Shown: piece by piece, positions 30,848-37,468 of the stretch
How positions within the stretch are numbered: position 1 is the first letter of the stretch
How the letters are laid out: each line of letters begins with the position of its first letter
Source of the DNA: an uncultured Spirochaetaceae bacterium
GTDB taxonomy: Bacteria > Spirochaetota > Spirochaetia > Sphaerochaetales > Sphaerochaetaceae
Assembly (NCBI GenBank): GCA_944389975.1
Contig: CALXOH010000023.1
Span: forward strand, 1-37,468
Direction: 5' to 3'
DNA length: 37,468 nucleotides
The notes under the pieces: generated by a model
Seen by the model: the letters and a program-made list of their open reading frames with translations, nothing else
Told to the model about the DNA's origin: nothing
The model's database searches: none
Program-made: the position numbers and the translations under genes

Positions 30848-30865
30848 CTGCCCCAGATAATCAAA

Positions 30866-30950
30866 GTGATTCTGGGGAGCTGTAAAGCTGAGAAAGGCCA
30901 GTCCTGACCCAAAACCTGATCTGGATAATACCAGCGTAGGGAGCAATCGC
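30866..30950 (+). promoter_or_regulatory. TPP riboswitch (THI element)
   Basis: The conserved blocks of the thiamine pyrophosphate aptamer are all present: GGGGAGC (30874-30880), AGCTGAGA at 30886-30893 (sensor loop), GACCC, ACCTGATCTGGATAATACCAGCGTAG in the pyrophosphate arm (30914-30939), then GGGAG. GTGATT (30866-30871) and AATCGC (30945-30950) close stem P1. P3 is very short (AGCT-GTAA-AGCT). No terminator hairpin with a T-run follows, so control is most likely of translation of ykoF. TPP binding is expected to switch off thiamine-precursor uptake. Confidence 0.95.
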
Positions 30951-30998
30951 TGACAGTTCGGCATGAATCTCTTTGAAAGAATCAGGAGGTTCATTTCC

Positions 30999-37020: not shown

Positions 37021-37022
37021 AA

Positions 37023-37190
37023 GAATCAGGACCACCGGCTGGGCCGGTGGTTTGTCCAAGCCCTATAAGGGCCTGATACCGGCAAGCGCTGATACGCGCC
37101 CTGAAGCCGACTGCCAGTCGCACACCTCCCCGGACAGCTGCTGAAGCAGCCTCCTGATTCATCTCTCCATCCGGAGACTTCCTGTCTCCG
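37023..37190. repeat. Hairpin cluster downstream of tnpA
   Basis: Several hairpins in under 170 bases: 37031-37051 (nine pairs), 37060-37072 (GCCCT-ATA-AGGGC), 37080-37109 (two nested stems), 37109-37119, 37137-37150 (GCTGC-TGAA-GCAGC), 37172-37190 (CGGAGAC-TTCCT-GTCTCCG). A nine-base inverted repeat GAATCAGGA (37023-37031) and TCCTGATTC (37152-37160) encloses the first five. This exceeds the one or two hairpins expected at an IS200/IS605 end. Confidence 0.75.
37031..37051. terminator. Perfect nine-base hairpin, IS end and possible terminator
   Basis: ACCACCGGC, a TGG loop and GCCGGTGGT, followed on the plus strand by TTGTCC. It lies ten bases after the stop of the FadH-like gene and could end its transcript, though the T-run is poor. 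It is equally the sub-terminal hairpin recognised by TnpA. Confidence 0.5.
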
Positions 37191-37207
37191 AATCCTTCTT
37201 CCCGCTG

Positions 37208-37468
37208 TTACTTGTCCTTCTTTGCCGGCTCACCCGTAAACGGGTCAGACAGCTCCTTCATCACCAGCTGCTCCTTATTCTTATCCTCTATCAGCTGGTT
37301 CCTGATGTATTTCTCTATCGCAGCCTTGTTCCTTCCGACCGTGTCAACATAATACCCGCGGCACCAGAATTCCCTGTTCCCGTACTTGTACTTCAGGTTC
37401 GCGAACCTGTCGAAGATCATCAGGCTGCTCTTCCCCTTCAGATACCCCATCACGCTCGACACGCTGTA
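37208..37468 (-). CDS. tnpA: IS200/IS605 transposase TnpA (Y1 HUH), 5' cut by window
   Basis: The last 86 residues of a Y1 transposase. The visible part matches the family closely: SVSSVMGYLKGKSSLMIF is the helix that follows the HUH metal site (the HUH itself lies beyond the window), and FWCRGYYVDTVGRN holds the catalytic Tyr. A charged tail follows (DPFTGEPAKKDK). The enzyme cuts and joins single-stranded DNA, folding hairpins at both ends. The frame is open to the last base of the window, so the gene continues. Confidence 0.93.
   Translation of the reverse strand, partial: YSVSSVMGYLKGKSSLMIFDRFANLKYKYGNREFWCRGYYVDTVGRNKAAIEKYIRNQLIEDKNKEQLVMKELSDPFTGEPAKKDK

What the first reader, a model, noticed from the sequence alone, without database searches (positions are those of the whole stretch)
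37021..37207. Dense hairpin array on the right side of an IS200/IS605 element
Six hairpins, five of them inside a nine-base inverted repeat, lie between tnpA and its right tip. The element has no visible tnpB or iscB. The region could encode a structured RNA or be a REP-like source, beyond the hairpins needed for transposition.
Basis: partly seen in the sequence, partly recalled or inferred. Interest (0 to 1): 0.5.

Follow-up and report, generated by a model that had tools for sequence, protein, structure and literature searches.

The report
Jumping gene's tail pairs with head
The hairpin-rich stretch after this small jumping gene is a conserved module shared with relatives in other bacterial phyla, and part of it is complementary to the predicted start of the gene's own message, which suggests an RNA clasp between the two ends that may control the element.

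Summary
The hairpins are real and not specific to this element. Window 37024-37155 (minus strand) is a 132-nt array of four covarying hairpins (PA-PD) that follows tnpA in IS200-group elements: present in place in 73 of 80 relatives (62 of these trained the model), inverted in one, weak in one, absent in one, cut off in four. PD is the right-end hairpin. Enterobacterial IS200 matches at about 60 bits. No Rfam family matched the array. The nine-base inverted repeat is not conserved.

Unexpected: the linker between PA and PB (37108-37117) is complementary to the tnpA 5' leader. Over 49 whole elements this is by far the strongest long-range covarying helix (score 181.4; next 33.1; maximum of 100 tree-based nulls 57.7). 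A second subfamily keeps the pairing with other letters. A -10-like motif lies 7-8 nt before the helix in 42 of 49, so the predicted mRNA starts with the paired strand.

Best reading: a cis 5'-end clasp in tnpA mRNA, superimposed on right-end DNA hairpins; its effect on TnpA is unknown. A DNA-level bridge between the ends is not excluded. REP-like and omega-RNA readings are not supported.

The parts
37208..37468 (-). 3' part of tnpA (Y1 transposase); the contig ends inside the gene
   Evidence: Pfam Y1_Tnp, E 1e-14; open frame to the window end
37024..37155 (-). Conserved 132-nt 3' array (PA, linker1, PB, linker2, PC, linker3, PD, tip)
   Evidence: Covariance model R1, 116.7 bits (the window row was in the training alignment A2); structure counts
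37137..37150 (-). Hairpin PA
   Evidence: Sequence; 5 of 5 modelled pairs with double changes
37108..37117 (-). 3' partner of the long-range helix (CTGGCAGTCG on the minus strand), in linker1
   Evidence: Complementary to CGACTGCCAG in the tnpA leader of genus copies; helix covariation. The 5' partner of this copy lies beyond the contig end
37086..37099 (-). Hairpin PB
   Evidence: Sequence; 5 of 5 modelled pairs with double changes
37060..37072 (-). Hairpin PC (GCCCTTATAGGGC)
   Evidence: Sequence; 5 of 5 modelled pairs with double changes
37031..37051 (-). Hairpin PD, the right-end (RE) hairpin
   Evidence: Inverted repeat I8; 99.8% of cells paired, 5 of 8 pairs with double changes
37024..37028 (-). 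Right tip TGATT (putative cleavage sequence)
   Evidence: Flanks diverge after it in the copies; its fourth base covaries with the base at the foot of PD (A-T / G-C)
37172..37190 (-). Hairpin P0 (CGGAGAC/GTCTCCG), outside the conserved array
   Evidence: I7; lies outside the region covered by model R1

Best explanation
The stretch is the conserved 3' module of a tnpA-only IS200-group element. Its last hairpin (PD) and tip are the right end that the Y1 transposase recognises and cleaves as single-stranded DNA (by homology). Copied into RNA, the same stretch is the 3' UTR of tnpA. There the linker between PA and PB pairs with roughly the first 11-15 nt of the predicted tnpA mRNA and locks its 5' end into a long-range helix. 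Predicted effect: the 5' end is hidden (protection from 5'-end-dependent decay, or a check that the transcript carries an intact right end) while the Shine-Dalgarno region stays as open as before; this would set how much TnpA each message yields. Shown here: structure, covariation, and a promoter-like -10 at the right spacing. Inferred: the start site, that the pairing acts in RNA and in cis, and its effect on expression.
For: Helix of nine pairs scores 181.4; next best long-range helix 33.1; null maximum 57.7 in 100 simulated alignments. Without the pairing filter: next best 63.4, null maximum 104.1 in 40. Own 5'/3' segments fit better than permuted ones (mean 12.62 against a maximum of 11.05 in 10,000 permutations, 62 elements). 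Second subfamily pairs with other letters. Extended -10 lies 7-8 nt before the helix in 42 of 49. Predicted messages fold with at least 5 helix pairs in 41 of 49, against 10 of 49 with swapped 5' ends. The array lowers the unpaired fraction of the first 11 nt from 0.41 to 0.13 and leaves the SD window at 0.52 against 0.49. GU cells exceed AC cells in this helix, 35 to 16.
Against: Taken singly, no long-range pair is significant over the whole element (best E about 10). Only 12 of 62 elements beat every foreign partner. 8 of 49 messages do not form the helix in the MFE, among them L070, L103, L109, L124. In Salmonella IS200 the reported start is at bp 40 (PMC12594629, figure legend), upstream of the 5' partner, and its pairing has two mismatches. 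No RNA data were seen. Hairpins PA-PD show few GU pairs, which fits DNA at least as well as RNA. Elements without tnpA keep both partners.
Confidence: 0.68

Rival explanations
1. The long-range pairing works in single-stranded DNA: on the exposed top strand the segment near the left end pairs with the right-end linker and brings the two ends together for the transposase. The other hairpins keep the right end single-stranded and ordered.
For: The transposase works on single-stranded hairpins (PMC6006769, passages). GU pairs are rare in PA-PD. MITE-like copies in Paenibacillus faecis that lack tnpA keep both partners (consensus a perfect 15-nt complement).
Against: The complementarity fades at the predicted transcription start. 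In the MITEs the 5' partner is no better conserved than the dead tnpA start (0.839 against 0.861), and 27 copies show no covariation (permutation 0.82), so retention may be neutral.
Confidence: 0.2
2. The 3' array is released as a small RNA and acts in trans on the leaders of other copies, as a copy-number control.
For: Partner sequences are shared between copies of one genome, so trans pairing is possible.
Against: No promoter or processing site for such an RNA was shown here; the partner is in the same transcript, so cis pairing should win.
Confidence: 0.08
3. The array is an omega-RNA scaffold for a TnpB working in trans.
For: It is structured and ends at the right tip, as omega RNAs do; the host genome has 8 TnpB matches.
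Against: None of 33 genus loci fetched through TnpB (30) or through the other Y1 genes of this genome (3) carries a match to the model. Where I could read past tnpB (20 loci) many tips are GTCAC or TTGAC-like.
Confidence: 0.02
4. The array is a source of REP-like solo palindromes.
For: REP-associated transposases are relatives (PMC6006769, passages), and P. faecis has 55 array matches against 14 transposase matches.
Against: The P. faecis copies share one cargo and a left end in the consensus: MITE-like. In this genus no such spread was seen, though many copies sit at contig ends.
Confidence: 0.02

Closest known systems
IS200 group of the IS200/IS605 family (founding member IS200 of Salmonella)
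   Same: Y1 transposase, single gene, terminal hairpins, a 5' leader related to Rfam STnc490 in some relatives, and a right-end array that the model finds in IS200F and IS200C
   Different: The paper I read in part (PMC12594629) describes a 5' stem over the RBS, an antisense RNA and a processed 5' small RNA; the passages read do not mention a 3' array or 5'-3' pairing
icaR mRNA of Staphylococcus aureus (PMC3868564; abstract and outline read)
   Different: There the SD region is paired and translation blocked; here the 5' end is paired and the SD window stays open in folds. Here it is family-wide and covarying
ISPpu9 with Asr9 and Ssr9 RNAs (PMC8450116; abstract and outline read)
   Same: Transposase mRNA with a structured leader and RNAs encoded on either side of the gene
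   Different: Another transposase; Ssr9 pairs with the antisense RNA Asr9, not with the leader itself
Bridge RNA / seekRNA of IS110 and IS1111 (PMC11208160, PMC11187229; search listings only)
   Same: Non-coding RNA of an IS element in which base pairing matters
   Different: Different transposase; those RNAs select target and donor DNA, whereas here the complement is the element's own tnpA leader

Membership tests
IS200 group (IS200/IS605 family) | Y1 (HUH) transposase | tested here: met
   Pfam Y1_Tnp on the window fragment; the DHIH motif lies outside the contig but is in the copies
IS200 group (IS200/IS605 family) | tnpA without tnpB | tested here: met
   In relatives the array and tip follow tnpA directly; the left side of the window copy is not assembled
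IS200 group (IS200/IS605 family) | Subterminal hairpins at both ends with guide/cleavage pairing at the foot | tested here: met
   LE and RE hairpins and the foot-tip pair are among the top covarying pairs; LE seen in relatives only
[quoted passage not shown]
   STnc490 matches in several relatives, one above its gathering score; the window lacks its leader
TnpB omega RNA | Lies at the 3' end of tnpB | tested here: not met
   No model match in 33 loci of the genus
REP / RAYT | Dispersed solo palindromes in the genome | tested here: not met
   Two array matches in the host genome, 47 places in 48 genomes of the genus; contig breaks limit this
[quoted passage not shown]
   Pairing supported by covariation; effect on expression not testable with these tools

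The most novel reading that the evidence does not exclude
The 3' array is a guiding RNA: its linker pairs with the element's own left-end DNA at the tnpA start (a bridge-like RNA or an R-loop), so that the message itself brings left and right ends together or licenses the transposase in cis. IS200, the founding member of the family, would then be an RNA-assisted transposon.
Probability: 0.06. Interest if true: 0.9.

Novelty: new variant of a known kind. Interest (0 to 1): 0.62.

Why it matters
IS200-group elements are among the smallest transposons and occur in many phyla, and why IS200 is so quiet is an old question. A covarying 5'-3' clasp kept from spirochaetes to Firmicutes, with traces in Salmonella IS200, would add a conserved layer of control that the eight literature searches made here did not turn up. 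It names exact letters to change and restore, so it can be tested directly.

Tried and rejected
Nine-base inverted repeat as a closing stem: not conserved. Omega RNA: no model match in 33 loci (reading of 20 of them). Known Rfam family for the array: none at the gathering threshold on the window, nor up to E 10 over the arrays of ten relatives, where the only recurring match was STnc490 in the 5' leader. REP-like spread: not seen in the genus. Selection on the pairing in MITEs: 34 stretches aligned, 27 with both partner segments aligned (several of these with an unrelated 5' segment), no signal. Pairing of linker1 with linker2 inside the array: not among the top 60 covarying pairs. tRNA stems as a yardstick for GU pairs: only 8 tRNAs and poor register, discarded. 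One column pair (129/155) was entered off by one and means nothing; the tip pair rests.

Rows dropped: searches used 49 of the 80 loci (contig-cut, rearranged, identical or unparsed ones left out); the model used 62 of the 80 plus the window.

Literature: searches. None of the listings or passages read describes the array, the pairing, or a preference of IS200 for terminators. Ellis 2015 (PMC4513863) is not held and was not read.

Full report
1. The observation. Its last 261 bases are the 3' part of a Y1 transposase gene on the minus strand. Between its stop codon (37208-37210) and the right tip (37024, a few bases after the stop codon of the neighbouring gene) lie six hairpins, as described. 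The surrounding 301 nt fold better than all 100 dinucleotide shuffles on either strand. The nine-base inverted repeat is there, but its outer base is flank and it is not kept in most relatives.

2. Relatives in the genus. A DNA search found copies in 15 of 60 genomes, the host included, all of one genus. Complete copies have a left-end hairpin, a leader, tnpA, the array and the tip TCATGATT or TCCTGATT (one copy GATA), after which flanks diverge. The genus appears to be an uncultured gut spirochaete: contigs of identical length are titled Spirochaetales or Spirochaetaceae; the exact genus is inference.

3. Relatives beyond the genus. A script that looks for the right-end hairpin and tip found 71 of 80. 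The covariance model found the array after tnpA in 73 of 80 at 87 bits or more; 62 of these were in its training set, 11 were not. L116 has it inverted (88.9 bits), L083 is weak (38.2 bits), L098 has none, and four run into contig ends (L095, L100, L106, L137).

4. Structure. On a sequence-only alignment of 63 rows, 20 of the 24 pairs entered show changes on both sides (one of the 24 was entered wrongly). 89.1% of cells are paired, against 71.8% after shuffling and 37-43% when partners are slid. The model finds the window at 37024-37155 (116.7 bits; this row was in the training set). Among loci outside the training set it finds IS200F and IS200C at 62.5 and 61.3 bits, and the second subfamily at 47-71 bits. 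No Rfam family matched the array. The leader of L076 matched STnc490 above its gathering score; other leaders matched below it.

5. The long-range helix. In the genus, leaders hold CGACTGCCAG in the loop of a small hairpin, and linker1 holds CTGGCAGTCG; the window has the latter at 37108-37117. I aligned 49 non-redundant whole elements by sequence and scored all column pairs. The top 15 pairs are in the LE and RE hairpins, PA, PB and PC, with the foot-tip pair of the right end. Four long-range pairs in the top 35 share one register, 5' -39..-32 with 3' +46..+39. As a helix of nine pairs it scores 181.4; the next best helix spanning more than 100 nt scores 33.1, and the best of each of 100 alignments simulated on the tree averages 37.9 with maximum 57.7. 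Without the pairing filter the next best is 63.4 and the null maximum 104.1 in 40. Taken singly the long-range pairs are not significant (best E about 10). Own 5' and 3' segments fit better than permuted ones (12.62 against at most 11.05 in 10,000 permutations, 62 elements), but only 12 of 62 beat every foreign partner, because many share letters.

6. Independent support. In a second subfamily (26 loci scored) most leaders hold TTCAAG with its complement in the linker and with covarying flanks (for example TCTATTGC/GCAATAG, CTAA/TTAG). L162 and L175 have other letters again. The lowest scorers (L161, L159, L193, L160, L235, L198) are weak, and some of them are not of this subfamily. Salmonella IS200F keeps 18 nt with two mismatches. 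There, the published start at bp 40 lies upstream of the partner, against my start-site prediction.

7. RNA or DNA. An extended -10 (at least 9 of 11 points in 45 of 49) lies 7 or 8 nt before the first base of the helix in 42 of 49, so the predicted transcript begins with the paired strand. No start site was measured. Predicted messages fold with the helix in 41 of 49, against 10 of 49 with swapped 5' ends. The array lowers the unpaired fraction of the first 11 nt from 0.41 to 0.13 and leaves the SD window about as it was (0.49 without, 0.52 with). GU cells exceed AC cells in this helix (35 to 16), whereas PA, PB and PC have few GU. I read this as hairpins working mainly in DNA and the clasp working in RNA; the second part is the weaker.

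8. MITEs. Paenibacillus faecis has 55 array matches and 14 transposase matches. I fetched 34 stretches around arrays without a transposase of their own; 32 contain no Y1 match, and in two (L338, L358) the match belongs to a neighbouring array. Their consensus has a left end, a leader with the 5' partner, the first codons of tnpA, a shared cargo and the full array. The partners are a perfect 15-nt complement in the consensus. The 5' partner is no better conserved than the dead gene start, and copies do not covary (27 copies, permutation 0.82). This neither proves nor excludes a DNA role.

9. Insertion sites. The left flank holds an intrinsic terminator with its T-tract in 36 of 46 elements by a script, against 6 of 44 right flanks and 391 of 3,727 other stretches of the same loci. 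The AAAA 5' of the left hairpin could pair with the T-tract, as guide and target sequences do in this family (inference from PMC6006769, passages).

10. Not an omega RNA. The host genome has 8 TnpB matches, and 18 of 36 genomes searched have some. None of the 33 loci fetched through TnpB or through the other three Y1 genes of the host holds a match to the model at E 0.01.

11. Literature. For PMC12594629 I read passages, the first part of the introduction and one discussion section: IS200 tnpA has an RBS-sequestering 5' stem, an antisense RNA and a processed 5' small RNA. For PMC3868564 and PMC8450116 I read abstract and outline; for PMC7290912, PMC6006769, PMC9208149 and PMC12323649, passages. 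None of these, nor the listings of the eight searches, describes the array or the 5'-3' pairing.

12. Verdict. Ordinary in one sense: the array is the right end of a known transposon group. New in another: it is a conserved structured module whose linker forms the strongest long-range covarying helix of the element, with the predicted start of the transposase message.

Noticed in passing
Left flanks of elements in L065-L144: The elements sit just 3' of the T-tract of an intrinsic terminator: 36 of 46 left flanks, against 6 of 44 right flanks and 391 of 3,727 other stretches. A safe harbour that may be chosen by pairing of AAAA with the T-tract.
   Followed up: partly
L334-L367, Paenibacillus faecis: A family of tnpA-less MITE-like copies with both ends in the consensus and a shared cargo rich in GATGCAAATCTGCAGG-like repeats.
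   Followed up: partly
L116: The array is inverted in place, between the arms of the right-end hairpin.
   Followed up: no
L007 / L281, G003:C4: The closest relative (97% over the shared part) lacks the left-end hairpin and the 5' partner; its upstream sequence is unrelated.
   Followed up: no
G000:C48:26493-26618 (L268, L002): A degenerate array copy without tnpA in the host genome (67.9 bits).
   Followed up: partly
window 30863-30960 (+): TPP riboswitch (64.1 bits), upstream of a transporter-like gene cluster.
   Followed up: no
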